Source: Candidatus Schekmanbacteria bacterium
GTDB taxonomy: Bacteria; CSSED10-310; JACPHN01
Length of the DNA: 6,552 nt
NCBI GenBank assembly: GCA_016188575.1
Contig: JACPHN010000258.1
Span: 1-6,552, forward strand
Direction: 5' to 3'
In this document: positions 121-6,552 of the stretch, piece by piece
Layout: each line of letters begins with the position of its first letter
How positions within the stretch are numbered: position 1 is the first letter of the stretch
The notes under the pieces: generated by a model
What the model was told of the DNA's origin: nothing
Databases searched by the model: none
The model's input: only the letters and a program-made list of their open reading frames with translations
Translations under genes and position numbers: made by a program

Positions 121-510
121 ATGCTGGCGGCGGTGCGCGCCTGGCTGCCGCTGCTCGCCCGCGACGTCCCCGGGTTCGACGCCGCGTCCTACGCCGCCGG
201 CAGTGCGGTGCCCGACGACCTGCTGGCCGATGCCGAGCGCCTGGCCGAGCAGATCGAGGAGGCGCGGACCCCGGCCGGTGAGCCGCTGCCCTACGCCGCG
301 GCGGCGCTGGCCGCCCTGGACACGGCAACGGTGGCGGCGCGTCAGGAATGGGCCGAGGCCGAGGCCGCAGACCGCCAGTACCAGGCGCAGCTCGCCGCCA
401 CCCGCGCGGCGGGCGCTGCGTTCGAGGAGGATCTGGTCGCGTTCCGGCGCACGCTGCTCGCCACCGCCGCCCGCGACGCCACCAGCGGCCGGCGCGCCCA
501 CCAGACGTGA
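121..510 (+). pseudogene. fragment of an Ala/Glu-rich helical protein, probably truncated at both ends
   Basis: This open frame of 129 codons encodes an alanine-, glutamate- and arginine-rich protein with strong helical and coiled-coil character, notably around residues 30-115. It has no signal peptide, membrane segment or catalytic motif that I recognise, so I give no function. The ATG at 121 has purines directly against it (GAAGGGG) and no well-spaced ribosome binding site, and the protein begins abruptly in what looks like the middle of a domain (VRAWLPLLARDVPGFD). Its last 15 or so codons, from about 462 to 510, are the antisense of a methylase start, so the natural C-terminus has been replaced at a recombination junction near 460. 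I read it as an internal fragment rather than a working gene. The codon pattern is plausible for real coding DNA up to the junction. A short intact gene is the alternative. Confidence 0.5.
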
Positions 511-614
511 AGGTAGTAGGTCGGGGGAAGCGCTGTCATTGTGCGCCGCTCGCGTTCGCTTTCTTCGCCCAACGCTGCCACGGGCATCCAGGTCTCGATC
601 AGTCGTTTCGTCAC
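462..614 (-). pseudogene. remnant A of DUF1156/COG1743 DNA adenine methylase (N-terminus only)
   Basis: Reading leftwards from a GTG at 612-614, the frame encodes VTKRLIETWMPVAALG, then RERRTMTALPPTYY and LHVWWARRPLVASRAAV. This is the characteristic N-terminus of DUF1156/COG1743 adenine-specific DNA methylases, in which the WWARRP motif is highly conserved. In intact members this is followed by several hundred residues with a zinc ribbon and an N6-adenine methylase fold. Here the similarity stops at about codon 51, and the frame then runs antisense through the helical-protein fragment to a stop at 342. All catalytic motifs are missing, so no methylase activity is possible. A purine-rich GGGGGATC lies about 5 bases upstream of the GTG, so the start was once a real initiation site. 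Remnant B at 1861-1965 is a separate, differently diverged copy of the same 5' end. Confidence 0.75.
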
Positions 615-1860: not shown

Positions 1861-1965
1861 TCAGGACAAGGATAGCCGTTTTCGCGTCATGGGCGTTCGC
1901 TCGCGCTCGCCTTCCACACCCAGCGCTGCCACGGGCATCCAGGTCCCGATCAAGCGTTTCGTCAC
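1861..1965 (-). pseudogene. remnant B of DUF1156/COG1743 DNA adenine methylase, coupled to the HNH gene
   Basis: A GTG at 1963-1965 overlaps the TGA of the HNH gene (GTGA), with GGTGAG just upstream as ribosome binding site. It opens a frame of 34 codons beginning VTKRLIGTWMPVAALGVEGE, the DUF1156 methylase N-terminus. Similarity ends after about codon 28 (RERTPMT), before the conserved WWARRP segment, and the frame stops at 1861-1863. The rest of the gene is absent from the window. The 4-bp overlap shows that a methylase was originally the next cistron of the defence operon, presumably modifying host DNA at adenine so that the system spares it. Aligned without gaps to remnant A, the two agree at about 22 of 28 residues but differ at many silent sites, so they are not a recent duplication. 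Confidence 0.7.
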
Positions 1966-1968
1966 GGT
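1922..1968. repeat. direct repeat copy 2 (methylase 5' end)
   Basis: This is the partner of 571-617. The two copies bracket about 1.3 kb holding the REP-like cluster, the 124-aa gene and the hairpin-rich region, so recombination between methylase genes could have shaped this segment. Confidence 0.7.
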
Positions 1969-2681
1969 CTCACCCGTCGGGCATGCAGCTTCTTCGCCAA
2001 ATATTGCGCTCGTATCAGTGCAAATGGCGGAAGCAGTCCTTCTGAATTAGGCGTTGTTGCCGCCTTGTACAGACTTTGTATCGCGCGGATTCCGTCGTCG
2101 CTGCGAAGCTTATTGTGCAGGTCATGAATGAGATCCTTGCGGTTATCGACGAGGCGTTGAGCATTCAAATTCAGGATATCGATGTCCACTCTCGCTTCTG
2201 GAATACTCCCTTCCACGCGGCCCGTATTCCGATAGACAAAGACCGCTTCCGGATCAGGTGTCTGCCGCCCGGGATGAACGGTTATCTTTTGCGCCCCCTT
2301 CGACGTGTCACAATGATCGACCTGACCTTTCGGGCCGAAGATCACGCCGCCGCAAACGCCCAGTAGATTGTCCCACTCATACATGCGGCGTGGTTCGGTT
2401 TCCCGAGCGACAACGTGCTCGATCTTCATGCCGCCATTTCCCTTCTTGGATCCACTGTCCGACGCGATCATGAGATAGCCGATGCTCCCGATCCGCTGCA
2501 TGCAGTACGCGCAGAGACCATGTTGGTTTCGATGCAAGCGCTCTCACAGCGGTTGGGCACAGTCCTTGGGATCCCAATCGGTGCCGCTCGGGGCTATTCC
2601 AGTATCTTGCTCGATGCGTTGGGCTTCCCGCTGCAAATCTGCCAAACACTGCGGTTCGCTGCCCTTAGTGATCCGGCGCAT
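1962..2681 (-). pseudogene. PtuB-like HNH nuclease, interrupted by an in-frame TGA
   Basis: Read through one stop, this is a 239-residue HNH-family protein resembling the PtuB/TIGR02646-type nucleases that partner PtuA ATPases in Septu and some retron systems. It starts at ATG 2679-2681 (MRRITKGSEP), with GGAAG six bases upstream, inside the 3' end of the ATPase gene. Visible motifs are CAYC (residues 57-60), KIEHVVAR (86-93, with the catalytic-type His at 89), WDNLLGVC (103-110) and HCDTSKG (123-129). These give four cysteines suited to a zinc site plus the HNH core. Codon 46 is TGA at 2544-2546, in the same frame on both sides, most simply a CGA-to-TGA change at a CpG. The whole catalytic core lies after it. 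Restart at the TTG at 2535-2537 (191 residues) is possible, but its ribosome binding site is weak. Otherwise the nuclease is lost. Its TGA overlaps the methylase start (GTGA). Confidence 0.75.
2544..2546 (-). other. premature TGA in the HNH gene
   Basis: The minus-strand codons around it read CAG-CCG-CTG, TGA, GAG-CGC-TTG-CAT, with the same frame on both sides and no base lost. An arginine codon CGA would fit the Leu-[Arg]-Glu-Arg helix before the first zinc cysteine. No reason to invoke selenocysteine is visible. Confidence 0.75.
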
Positions 2682-4500
2682 CGTTGACTTCCAAGTCATG
2701 GATCTCCCACTCCAGCCGCACGACCTCACGATCGTGGTCCCCGAGATCGCTCCTGATCGCCCCGAGAAGCGCCTTGGCCTCGGCGAGCTTCGCATCCTCG
2801 ATCAAGCTCTCGATCCGATCGAGCTTCTCCTCCATCGACTGCGGGCGTGGTCTGACGCCCATGATTTCTCTGAGAATCGCATTGCTATCTCGGCCGTGAA
2901 CTGGCTCCGTCGGCAAGGCGCCGCCCGCGTCGGCAACGAGCAACCGCATCCACTCTCGCCTTGCCGTGGCAATGACTTGGGGAGAGTGGGTCGTGACGAT
3001 GAGCTGAATCTTCGGAAACGCCCGTCGTAGGTCATCCAGCACCTGGTGTTGCCAGGAGGGATGGAGATGCAGGTCGATCTCATTGATGAGGACAACGCCT
3101 TCGGCCTTCCTTCCAGCCTCGCCGCCGTGGTGTGGATTCAGTTGGACCGCGCGCCAGGCGATATCCGCCACCATGCCCAGGAGATTGCGGTAGCCGTCGG
3201 AAAGACGCGAGAAAGGAAGCTCGTGACCGCCGATGAAAGTCAACCGGAGCTCTTCGTAGGCGAGGCTGTACGACAGGCCGGTAGCGCCTTCGACACAGCA
3301 CAGCACGGCCTGCTCCACCGCCTCTACATCCACCAACCGGACGAGCGTGGGACTTTCACCACGATCCAGCGCGGCAGCAATTTGTTGCAGGCGATCTTGC
3401 TCGCGCCAGCGCATCCAGGCCTCAAAGAGCTTTTGGTTGGAGGCCGGGTCGAGGCAATCGGTATAGCCATTGAAGCGGGATCCGAGTCCCGACGTCTTCA
3501 GAACGCTCATTTGCTTCTGACTCCACAGCCGGCCCGTACCATAATAGGCGATGACGGGAAGGTCGACGGGAGCGCCAGTGGACACCGCCTTCTGCGCCTC
3601 TGCTGCCCACGACCGCAGCTCCGCAGCGCTGCCGTACGTGGTCTTTCCACCCTTCTTGCGCAGCTCACGAGACCAGGAAAGGCTGCGATCGAACAGGCGA
3701 CCATCCACGTGAATCTCGACGGGGTAAATGGGCTCTAGCCGAACAGTGTCGTTGCCGTGCGCTGTCCGCATGAGGCGGATTTCCTCGTCCACTATTGAAC
3801 GTGCCTGGACGTCGGCGAGATTGATGAACCAACTGCCGATGGCGACGGCCAACGCGTCGAGAATCGCCGATTTGCCCGCCCCGTTTGCACCGATGAGCAC
3901 CGTTGTTTGGGGATGGAAGCGAGCGTCAAATGTCTGGAAACCGCGAAAATTCCGTACGGCGAGTCGATCGATGCGAAACAAGCAGCCGCCATGATCCAGG
4001 TAGTCGAGAAACTCGAGCGGAGTCATGGTCTTGATTCGATGCCGCAGCCACAAGGCGGCGCTGCCGGCAAGGATTTTGCGATCTCGGGTCAGAAAGACGT
4101 CGCGTCCACGGCGGCAATGGCCGAGGAGCGCATCGACGTCGCTGATCCGGCGCCGATTCGCCCCGGTATGGGCCTGTCGGTCAATGCCCGGGTAGAGGAG
4201 CTCGAAGAGCTCCTTGGCGAGGGCGACCTCTTGCGCAGAAACAATGTAGTCGTCTCCGAGGCGTGAAAAGCCGACCCGAAAGGGCGCAGAGACGGGCGTG
4301 TCGACAAGGCTCAGCGCCTCGATGCGCGCCCGCAATGGCCCCTCTGGGATGTCCATCTTGTAGCGGGAGCTCACGCCGACATCGACTATTCCCGCTTCGT
4401 GAAGTCGCAGCAGCTCCAACGCCGCCTCGTGGTCAGGACGCCCTGCTTCCTGCATGTCGCGCAGGACGTTGGTGTCGGCGGTGACACGTAGCCGGGACAT
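2665..4500 (-). CDS. PIN-domain/PtuA-like AAA ATPase fusion (611 aa)
   Basis: This is a two-domain protein. Residues 3 to about 165 look like a PIN-type ribonuclease domain: ADTNVL opens it with Asp9, a helix with DVDALL supplies Asp121/Asp123, and DVFLTRDRKIL supplies Asp140. Residues from about 175 onward form an ATPase of the COG3950/Septu PtuA (RecF/OLD-like) kind. It begins with IDRLAVRNFRGF and has Walker A GANGAGKS (204-211), an ABC-type signature near RLSDGYRNLL (432-441), Walker B VVLINEIDLHLHP (469-481) and the His switch TTHSP (503-507). The C-terminus is helical and charged. In Septu, PtuA clusters around PtuB and controls its nuclease. Here a second nuclease domain is fused to the ATPase. 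ATG 4498-4500 is chosen because AGGTGA lies five bases upstream. GTG 4507-4509, overlapping the previous stop as GTGA, is the alternative (614 aa). The gene is intact, and its last 17 bp overlap the HNH gene. Confidence 0.85.
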   Translation of the reverse strand: MSRLRVTADTNVLRDMQEAGRPDHEAALELLRLHEAGIVDVGVSSRYKMDIPEGPLRARIEALSLVDTPVSAPFRVGFSRLGDDYIVSAQEVALAKELFELLYPGIDRQAHTGANRRRISDVDALLGHCRRGRDVFLTRDRKILAGSAALWLRHRIKTMTPLEFLDYLDHGGCLFRIDRLAVRNFRGFQTFDARFHPQTTVLIGANGAGKSAILDALAVAIGSWFINLADVQARSIVDEEIRLMRTAHGNDTVRLEPIYPVEIHVDGRLFDRSLSWSRELRKKGGKTTYGSAAELRSWAAEAQKAVSTGAPVDLPVIAYYGTGRLWSQKQMSVLKTSGLGSRFNGYTDCLDPASNQKLFEAWMRWREQDRLQQIAAALDRGESPTLVRLVDVEAVEQAVLCCVEGATGLSYSLAYEELRLTFIGGHELPFSRLSDGYRNLLGMVADIAWRAVQLNPHHGGEAGRKAEGVVLINEIDLHLHPSWQHQVLDDLRRAFPKIQLIVTTHSPQVIATARREWMRLLVADAGGALPTEPVHGRDSNAILREIMGVRPRPQSMEEKLDRIESLIEDAKLAEAKALLGAIRSDLGDHDREVVRLEWEIHDLEVNDAPDH

Positions 4501-4505
4501 CGGGA

Positions 4506-4991
4506 TCACCTACCTCTCTTCGGATCGATGAGCAGGTGTCGCAGCGACATGAGCACTCGCCTGGGGTACTTGCGGTGCATGGCCATTCCGAGCCAGTAGG
4601 CCGCTTCTTCCTTCTCCATCGCTTCTATGCCCTCGGCGACTTGCTGCATATTGAAGCGATCGCGCATCGGGGCGAGCGAGCGAAACATGAGGCCGAGCTG
4701 CAGCGCGAGGAGCTCGTTGACGGCGAAGCAGCGCTCGGCCCCTGGCCCCAAGCCCCCCAGATCGATGTCCGCCCTCTTCAGCCGTGGCAACACCCGCGGC
4801 TCGACCAGCGCCAGGTTCCGGCCGTGCAGTCCCGCGATGCGCTTCGCTTTCTTCAGATGCGGCGACGCCGCGCTCGGAAGCTGCCACACTTCGAGCTGGG
4901 CGTTGCTCGAGCTGATCAGCTTCGCGCGCAGCTCGTACTGCGGTTGCGCTCCGTTCACGGGGCTGCAGTGCTTACCGTTACTCGCTCCCAT
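4506..4991 (-). CDS. 161-aa accessory protein of the COG1483 operon, unknown function
   Basis: I cannot name this soluble 161-residue protein with certainty. It may belong to one of the small families (such as DUF7680) that I associate with COG1483 ATPase loci, but that is a weak recollection. The first 45 residues are poorly structured, followed by a basic segment (HLKKAKRIAGLHGRNLALVEPRVL is the region at 46-69). The C-terminal half (about 93-160) is a compact helical domain with conserved-looking LAPMRDR, EAAYWLGMAMHRKYPRRVL and LLIDP segments. No catalytic residues stand out, so an adaptor or structural role is possible. The ATG at 4989-4991 overlaps the upstream stop as TGATG and has GGAGG seven bases ahead. 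GTG at 4992-4994 is a weaker alternative. The stop at 4506-4508 sits against the PIN-ATPase start, so the two are coupled. The gene is intact. Confidence 0.75.
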   Translation of the reverse strand: MGASNGKHCSPVNGAQPQYELRAKLISSSNAQLEVWQLPSAASPHLKKAKRIAGLHGRNLALVEPRVLPRLKRADIDLGGLGPGAERCFAVNELLALQLGLMFRSLAPMRDRFNMQQVAEGIEAMEKEEAAYWLGMAMHRKYPRRVLMSLRHLLIDPKRGR

Positions 4992-6552
4992 CACTTCGCC
5001 TCCGCCTCCGCTTCCGCCTCGACGAAGGCCGCGCCCGTGGCGAATCGCGTCAGCCGCGCCGACAGCTTTTCAGGCTCATCGCCGGCAAGCGGGAAACCCT
5101 GGTTCCAGCTCACCGTGTACACGCAAGTCAGGTGCGTCTCCTGCGCCGCTCGAAACTGGGGCTCGAGGAAGTCCTTCAGCGGCTGTGCGTCGCTCGGCGG
5201 TCCGTCAAACTCGAGCGAGAGCGTGCCACCGGCGGCGGTCTCGTACTCGGCTTCGAGCCGCACCGTCTTGTCGGCGCCGCTGGTGCCGGAAATCACGCCG
5301 AGCAAGCGGAAAGCGTCGGCAACTTCGAGGACGCGAAGCCGCAGCCTGGCCAGACTCTCGACCCTGGCCGCCCGAGCGTCCTCCCAAATCCGCGTCAGCG
5401 CCTCCTTGAGCGGCGCCTCGGCCTTGAAGGCTTTCGTCTGCGAGACGGGCGGTGTCGTCCCACCGCCGCCAGCGCCGGCATTAGCGGCGGGGCCAGGTCC
5501 CTGGCCTGCCGGGGTTGGACGAGGCCCTGGCGGCGGGCCGCGGCCAGATACCTTTCTCGGTGGCGTACGCCATGGTGAAAACGCAGGACTGCTCGTCGAT
5601 CTTGATCTCCGCGAAGGGGTCGCCGGGGCCGAACAGGAGCTCGCCGCTCCTGTACACGTACACCTCGTCCTTCACGCCATTGCGGATCATCTTCAGCAGG
5701 TTGCCGTTTCCGAGCATGATCGGCAGACGCGGATCTCTTCGGAATTCCCCTCGCAGGTCCGCCGTGGTGATCTGACCCTTCTTGAGCGGCGTCTGGTCGC
5801 GCACGTAGGTAGCGGCGAGCGGGTGATCCTCGTCGCGCAACAGCTTGTTGTTTTCAGCCAGCGCGCGAAGCACTTGCTGCTGGCCGGCTCCGGGTTTTTC
5901 GGACGCCGAGTGGACATCGAAGGCGGTGTGGCCCAGGTCGACAGTGGCGCCGCTGACGCGGTTGCCGCGCGACGGGTAGAACATCTGGCGATAACACTGC
6001 TGAATCGCGAGCGCCAGCTCCTGCTCCGCGCGCTGATGGAGCTCGTTGACCTTGTCCTGTTGGTGCTCGGCGAGATCCCTGAGGCGTTCCGGCTGCCGCA
6101 TGGCCGCGAGCGCAAGCCGGCGGCGAATCCTGGCTTTCATCTCGCCGCGCATCGCCTCGTCGGCCAACAGAAACACGAGATTGTTCTGAAGCTGGCGAAA
6201 GGCCCCCTGAGACCCGTGGGTGCGAAAGATCTTTTCGACCAGCGGCGGAATGGACACCATGTCGCTTTTGACGGTCTCCGCGTCATAACCGATCAAGACG
6301 AGATACGGGCGACCGTCGCCGACGTTGTCATCGACGTCGTAGGGACCGCCGGCGAAGGGGACCAAGTTGAGCGCGCCGCCGCCGAAGATGGTGCGGATGC
6401 GGTCGTTGAGCTGGGTGCGCACCTCGTTGGGATCGATCTGGTTCTCCTGGCGCCGGATAATCTGGGTCAAGTTGGCTTCGGTGAGAAACCGGAGCGGCAC
6501 GGCAGGGCGATCGTCGAGGAAGGCGGATTCCGCCATGAACCGCTTGCGCGCA
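4991..6552 (-). pseudogene. DUF499/COG1483-family defence ATPase, C-terminal half, frameshifted and cut by the window edge
   Basis: The frame is open to the right edge, and the ATG at 6534-6536 is internal, so the gene's 5' part, including the P-loop ATPase domain of this roughly 1000-residue family, lies outside. About 518 codons are visible. They include FMAESAFLDDRPAVPLRFL, FGGGALNLVPFAGGPYDV, DGRPYLVLIGYD, FRQLQNNLVFLLADEA, a helical EHQQDKVNELHQRAEQELALAIQQCYR-type region at about 6000-6070, then TPLKKGQITTADLRGEFRRD and VYRSGELLFGPGDP, typical of DUF499. After GIWPR the frame ends at 5481, but the next frame continues the family's Pro/Gly-rich linker and conserved tail (LGVISGTSGADKTVRLEAEYET, ending in EAEAEAK at 4994), so one extra base is present near 5535. 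Such ATPases accompany COG1743 methylases in defence islands. The broken gene may be inactive, or the shift may be a sequencing error. Confidence 0.85.
5531..5540 (-). other. frameshift site in the DUF499 gene
   Basis: On the minus strand the codons TGG-CCG-CGG-CCC-GCC lead to a TAA 18 codons later (5481-5483). Dropping one base of the CCC run (5535-5537) joins the upstream frame to the frame that reads PPPGPRPTPAGQGPGPA and then the conserved C-terminal domain. A +1 slip at the proline CCC codon gives the same protein. Confidence 0.7.

What the first reader, a model, noticed from the sequence alone, without database searches (positions are those of the whole stretch)
1861..6552. PIN-fused Septu-like pair embedded in a COG1483-COG1743 defence operon
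Seen: five minus-strand cistrons overlap or nearly touch (TGATG, GTGA or a 5-bp gap, 17 bp, GTGA), in the order DUF499 ATPase, 161-aa protein, PIN+PtuA-like ATPase, PtuB-like HNH, DUF1156 methylase start. Known: COG1483 ATPases and COG1743 adenine methylases co-occur in defence islands, and PtuA plus PtuB make up Septu. Inferred: this is a composite system in which self-marking (methylase), a large ATPase and two nuclease activities (PIN and HNH) act together. The N-terminal PIN on a PtuA-type ATPase could add RNA cleavage to the DNA-cutting HNH effector. I do not know of a described system with exactly this order.
Basis: partly seen in the sequence, partly recalled or inferred. Interest (0 to 1): 0.75.

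Follow-up and report, generated by a model that had tools for sequence, protein, structure and literature searches.

The report
Decayed defence operon with PIN-fused Septu ATPase
This is a broken copy of a known kind of bacterial anti-phage operon that carries, in a slot between its usual genes, a Septu-type ATPase and nuclease pair; unusually, the ATPase has an extra RNA-cutting (PIN-type) domain at its front, a combination found here only in this one genome.

Summary
The gene order was read correctly and the PIN call holds. Residues 1-170 have no Pfam match but model as a PIN fold: nearly all top rows in the PDB are PIN nucleases (VapC, protein-only RNase P, SMG6). The rest is PtuA (PADLOC E 1e-134), followed by PtuB. 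The frame is DUF499 - DUF7680 - [PIN-PtuA - PtuB] - DUF1156: a DUF499-centred BREX-related (Hma-like) system with an effector pair in an internal slot. A 2026 survey already describes OLD-ABC/HNH pairs embedded in such systems. The window copy is decayed: DUF499 has a frameshifting 44-bp gap, PtuB an in-frame TGA, PtuA's Walker B Asp is Asn, DUF1156 is cut to 27 codons. A second copy on another contig (89% identical) is broken differently. No other PIN-PtuA fusion was found in the searches made, although PIN relatives exist elsewhere, several joined to a domain that other proteins join to TIR. The slot varies across DUF7680 loci, so the pair looks like an exchangeable backup effector. PtuB-type HNH enzymes can cut tRNA, so both nuclease activities may act on RNA. 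Verdict: new variant of a known kind, probably not functional as found.

The parts
4991..6552 (-). DUF499 AAA+ ATPase (HmaC/BrxC-like), 3' part. The 5' part lies on contig C75, which shares an exact 127-bp end with the window. Reading frame broken at about 5538 by 44 bp missing relative to the second copy.
4506..4994 (-). DUF7680 protein (161-162 aa), partner gene of DUF499 and DUF1156
   Evidence: PF24728 E 3.2e-38; same position in Nostoc, Aminobacter and Sinorhizobium plasmids
2665..4509 (-). PIN-PtuA fusion, open frame of 614 aa from GTG 4509 or 611 aa from ATG 4500
3964..4497 (-). PIN-like domain. Conserved acidic residues D8, D49, D120, D139 (counted from the Ser after ATG 4500); the first three are invariant in 12 sequences.
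3868..3891 (-). Walker A GANGAGKS of PtuA. The second copy lacks 10 bp just before it (window 3893-3902).
3058..3090 (-). Walker B LINEIDLHLHP; Asn codon 3082-3084 where the second copy and solved PtuA have Asp
1962..2681 (-). PtuB (HNH endonuclease; TIGR02646 retron-type HNH) with an in-frame TGA at 2544-2546
1885..1965 (-). Truncated start (27 codons) of a DUF1156 N6-adenine methylase gene, overlapping the PtuB stop as GTGA
450..614 (-). Second truncated DUF1156 start (55 codons), cut off by a repeated sequence

Best explanation
A decayed copy of a DUF499-centred BREX-related (BR/Hma-type) restriction-modification-like operon. Its internal accessory slot, between DUF7680 and the DUF1156 methylase, holds a Septu-like pair in which PtuA has gained an N-terminal PIN RNase domain. 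Inferred ancestral working: the core marks self DNA (DUF1156), recognises foreign DNA (DUF499, DUF7680) and restricts it (HKD helicase). The PtuA ATPase assembly holds PtuB and the PIN domains inactive; when the core is inhibited or infection is sensed, it releases them, and HNH (tRNA, as in Septu EcB88) plus PIN (RNA) stop translation as a backup abortive response. Shown: gene identities, PIN fold, order, lesions, second copy, variability of the slot. Inferred: trigger, RNA targets, cooperation with the core.
For: PIN fold: AF2 pLDDT 80.9, pTM 0.80; VIA-align top rows nearly all PIN nucleases, Z 8-10; acidic residues conserved. PtuA: PADLOC 1.3e-134 over 178-604; solved PtuA 8ee4, 2.7e-73. 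PtuB 3e-38. Core order DUF499-DUF7680-DUF1156-helicase in plasmids of three genera, helicases with an N-terminal HKD/PLD-like signature. Slot 0 to 6.5 kb with toxin-antitoxin, GmrSD-like and OLD-like cargo. PtuA-PtuB also sits inside a helicase/DUF1156/ATPase operon and inside a type I RM operon, with overlapping or touching genes. Second copy with the same PIN-PtuA order, and a DUF1156 tail right after its PtuB fragment. Literature: PMC12839542, PMC13096335.
Against: No other genome found with the fusion, and both copies are broken, so no intact example was seen. PIN dN/dS between the copies is 0.57 (0.26-1.17), not clearly below 1. The second copy has N at the fourth acidic position. Foldseek alone gives only E 6e-3 for the PIN match. 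No expression or assay data; RNA targets are taken from homologues.
Confidence: 0.55

Rival explanations
1. An ordinary Septu pair that landed by chance in a decaying defence island; the PIN domain is a chance gene fusion without a role, and the pair never worked with the core.
For: Fusion seen only in this genome; the closest PtuA relatives outside are stand-alone PtuA-PtuB pairs without PIN; PIN dN/dS not clearly below 1; slot contents vary freely.
Against: Translationally coupled junctions on both sides of the pair; both copies keep the same order with DUF499-DUF7680 upstream and DUF1156 sequence downstream; PIN acidic residues retained in the window copy; PtuA-PtuB embedded with overlapping or touching genes in other modification operons.
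Confidence: 0.27
2. The PIN domain acts as a catalytically poor sensor or adaptor (binding RNA or a phage product) that switches the PtuA ATPase, rather than as a second nuclease.
For: Second copy has Asn at the fourth acidic position; the role of the PIN domain in its non-ATPase relatives is untested.
Against: D8, D49 and D120 invariant in all 12 sequences and D139 present in the window copy. In PIN relatives the C-terminal domain is one that other proteins join to TIR, an effector domain, which argues that PIN fills the effector place too.
Confidence: 0.12
3. The lesions are assembly errors and the operon is intact and functional in the organism.
For: The window is one short contig of a draft genome in 275 contigs.
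Against: Several lesions of different kinds (44-bp gap, in-frame TGA, Walker B D to N, two methylase truncations) and different lesions in the second copy; the flank downstream is filled with dispersed repeats of the same genome.
Confidence: 0.06

Closest known systems
DUF499-centred BREX-related (BR) systems, Type 2; earlier named Hma (PMC12839542)
   Same: DUF499 ATPase, DUF1156 N6-methylase, Snf2 helicase with an N-terminal HKD/PLD-like signature (in the second copy and relatives); OLD-ABC/HNH pairs reported as embedded auxiliary effectors.
   Different: DUF7680 present; no DUF3780 found in the stretches checked, although 98% of Type-2 taxa are said to have it; the paper's main text does not mention DUF7680 or a PIN domain fused to the ATPase.
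Septu (PtuA-PtuB)
   Same: PtuA-type ABC ATPase followed by an overlapping PtuB HNH gene; profile matches over full length.
   Different: PtuA has about 170 extra N-terminal residues with a PIN fold; the pair sits inside a modification operon; Walker B Asp is Asn and PtuB has a stop.
Retron type I-A effector pair (Eco7/Ec78)
   Same: ATPase_I-A and HNH_I-A models match; the HNH is in TIGR02646.
   Different: No reverse transcriptase recognised in the window.
ptuXYZ (PtuA-like ATPase with PIN-YoeB toxin; PMC11980606)
   Same: A PtuA-like ATPase coupled to a PIN-like domain in one operon.
   Different: There PIN is on a separate protein with a RelE/YoeB-type domain and the partner has the GmrSD-like DUF262; here PIN is fused to the ATPase and the partner is PtuB.
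PIN-like proteins such as Asticcacaulis WP_338736601
   Same: 27% identity over 172 residues, same conserved acids.
   Different: Joined to a C-terminal domain that is elsewhere found in TIR proteins, not to an ATPase.

Membership tests
PIN nuclease fold | PIN-like alpha/beta fold | tested here: met
   AF2 model of residues 1-181, pLDDT 80.9; VIA-align rows led by VapC, protein-only RNase P and SMG6, Z up to 10.3
PIN nuclease fold | Conserved acidic active-site residues | tested here: met
   D8, D49, D120 invariant in 12 sequences, D139 in the window copy; the match to VapC positions is by topology only
PIN nuclease fold | RNase activity | not testable with these tools
   no assay
Septu | PtuA-type ATPase with Walker A, signature and Walker B | tested here: inconclusive
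   Profile and 8ee4 alignment over 175-597; GANGAGKS and LSDGYRN intact; Walker B Asp is Asn in the window copy
Septu | Adjacent PtuB HNH endonuclease | tested here: met
   PtuB1 E 3e-38 over full length when the TGA is read through; the gene itself is interrupted
Septu | Anti-phage activity | not testable with these tools
   no assay; the copy is broken
Type-2 BR system | DUF499 ATPase and DUF1156 methylase | tested here: met
   DUF499; DUF1156 only as truncated starts in the window, and in two overlapping frames on the second copy's contig
Type-2 BR system | HKD-helicase | tested here: met
   Only on the second copy's contig; not in the window
Type-2 BR system | DUF3780 | tested here: not met
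   No hit in G000 (though no control genome rang) nor in the stretches fetched around 32 DUF7680 loci
Retron type I-A | Reverse transcriptase and msr/msd | tested here: not met
   None of the main window ORFs scanned matches a reverse transcriptase; the second copy's contig was not scanned for it

The most novel reading that the evidence does not exclude
PIN-PtuA is a two-nuclease RNA-targeting effector under one ATPase switch: PIN in cis and a tRNA-cutting PtuB in trans, mounted as a backup layer in a DUF7680-marked subtype of BREX-related systems whose internal slot exchanges effectors.
Probability: 0.3. Interest if true: 0.6.

Novelty: new variant of a known kind. Interest (0 to 1): 0.4.

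Why it matters
It adds a PIN nuclease to the domains found fused to a Septu ATPase, and shows a recurring place, between DUF7680 and DUF1156, where BREX-related operons swap effector modules. The pairing of PtuA-PtuB with modification operons (also inside a type I RM operon) suggests a testable idea: that Septu pairs serve as guards that stop the cell when restriction fails.

Tried and rejected
Pfam, even at E 10, gives nothing for residues 1-178, and phmmer against PDB sequences gives only chance hits; the PIN call rests on the fold comparison. Plasmid tblastn with the PIN domain gave one hit; phages and viral contigs gave none. DUF7680 as a distant DUF3780: hhalign P 0.058, probability 0.9%, not supported. 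The second copy was considered as independent support for the fusion, but the stretch from DUF499 to about 3800 looks recently homogenised (dS about 0.1, against 0.77 for the ATPase after the 10-bp deletion), so it counts as partial support only.

Full report
What is there. The window is contig C113 (6552 bp) of a 9.2-Mb draft genome; dispersed repeats at its 5' end occur on many other contigs of the same genome, so it belongs there. All the genes in question are on the minus strand. In reading order: the 3' part of a DUF499 ATPase (5' part on contig C75, which shares an exact 127-bp end), a DUF7680 protein, a 614-aa open frame, a PtuB-type HNH gene and the first codons of a DUF1156 methylase.

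Identity of the parts. The 161-162-aa protein is DUF7680 (PF24728, E 3.2e-38). The long frame matches PtuA over residues 178-604 (PADLOC E 1.3e-134) and solved PtuA 8ee4 over 175-597 (2.7e-73). The HNH gene, read through its stop, matches PtuB over its full length (3e-38) and the retron-type HNH family TIGR02646.

The PIN domain. Residues 1-178 have no Pfam match even at E 10. A tblastn hit on an Asticcacaulis plasmid and nine loci from species genomes gave a family alignment with D8, R45, D49, D120, L124, H127, R132, D133, F135, T137 and L149 invariant. An AF2 model from the window and the nine genome relatives (pLDDT 80.9, pTM 0.80) has PIN topology. Foldseek alone is weak (best E 6e-3, a VapC). 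VIA-align puts VapC toxins, protein-only RNase P, SMG6, Rrp44 and Nob1 at Z 7.4-10.3, and the list leaves PIN-type proteins only at its last row. The tool warns that Z under 8 can be a common arrangement; the uniformity of the list and the conserved acids are what make the call.

Rarity. None of the nine relatives is joined to an ATPase. Five of them share the C-terminal domain of the Asticcacaulis protein, and on other plasmids that domain lies mostly in proteins annotated as TIR-domain proteins. Three more relatives among 386 genomes have frames of 396, 375 and 170 aa; I read two of them and saw no ATPase. The fusion was found only in this genome, twice.

The second copy. Contig C226 carries DUF499, DUF7680 and the PIN-PtuA frame at 89% DNA identity. 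There DUF499 is intact, PtuA has a 10-bp deletion just before Walker A, and the PtuB start runs into the tail of a DUF1156 gene, so the ancestral order was the same. A second PtuA-like ATPase with its own HNH gene, another ATPase, a DUF1156 gene in two overlapping frames and an HKD-helicase follow. Divergence is uneven: dS about 0.1 for DUF499, DUF7680 and PIN, 0.77 for most of the ATPase, with the change at about window 3800. Recombination between copies is the simplest reading.

Decay. In the window copy, DUF499 lacks 44 bp present in the second copy and changes frame. PtuB has an in-frame TGA at 2544-2546. PtuA's Walker B reads LINEID where the second copy and 8ee4 have LIDE; in Septu EcB88, changes in the Walker A or B motif abolished immunity (PMC13096335). 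DUF1156 is represented by two truncated starts of 27 and 55 codons.

Context elsewhere. DUF7680 lies between DUF499 and DUF1156 in Nostoc, Aminobacter and Sinorhizobium plasmids, with a helicase after them, and in many genome loci. The helicases checked have an HKD/PLD-like N-terminus. No DUF3780 was found near DUF7680 loci. The space between DUF7680 and DUF1156 is 0 to 6.5 kb and holds VapC-like and RES/Xre toxin genes, a GmrSD-like gene, OLD-like ATPases and others. PtuA-PtuB pairs sit inside other modification operons: helicase-PtuA-PtuB-DUF1156-ATPase in Rhizobium rhizogenes and a type I RM operon in Ketogulonicigenium. Other relatives of this PtuA are stand-alone pairs, so the association is recurrent but not obligate.

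Interpretation. The core is a DUF499-centred BREX-related system close to Type 2 as defined in PMC12839542, which also reports OLD-ABC/HNH pairs as auxiliary effectors. The pair in this window is such an auxiliary module with a PIN domain added. A Septu pair cuts tRNA-Tyr (PMC13096335), so the ancestral module may have been a double RNA-targeting abortive effector. That step, the trigger and the link to the core are inference.

Verdict. New variant of a known kind, seen in one genome in two broken copies. The wider observations, a DUF7680-marked subtype and its variable effector slot, may outlast the fusion itself.

Noticed in passing
4506-4994, and loci L049-L051, L079-L083, L114-L133: DUF7680 lies with DUF499 and, in most loci, DUF1156 across Cyanobacteria, Alphaproteobacteria, haloarchaea and others; no DUF3780 near; the main text of the 2026 BREX survey does not mention it.
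   Followed up: partly
L080, L081, L082, L121, L114 and others: The DUF7680-DUF1156 interval is a variable slot holding toxin-antitoxin, GmrSD-like, OLD-like and other modules.
   Followed up: partly
L140 6010-7954: PtuA-PtuB pair inside a type I restriction-modification operon (methylase-HsdS-PtuA-PtuB-type I endonuclease) on a Ketogulonicigenium plasmid; similar RM annotation beside Enterobacter plasmid hits, not opened.
   Followed up: no
L009 7248-8719: A second, different PtuA-like ATPase and HNH gene downstream of the PIN-PtuA copy on C226.
   Followed up: partly
L048 11794-12783: A PIN-like protein family without a Pfam match, joined to a C-terminal domain that elsewhere lies in TIR proteins.
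   Followed up: partly
673-870 and 1632-1759: Two dispersed repeat families, about 82-84% and 96-98% identical to copies on many contigs of the same genome.
   Followed up: no
897-1271: A 124-aa open frame with an 80% identical (DNA) copy on contig C218; no family match.
   Followed up: no
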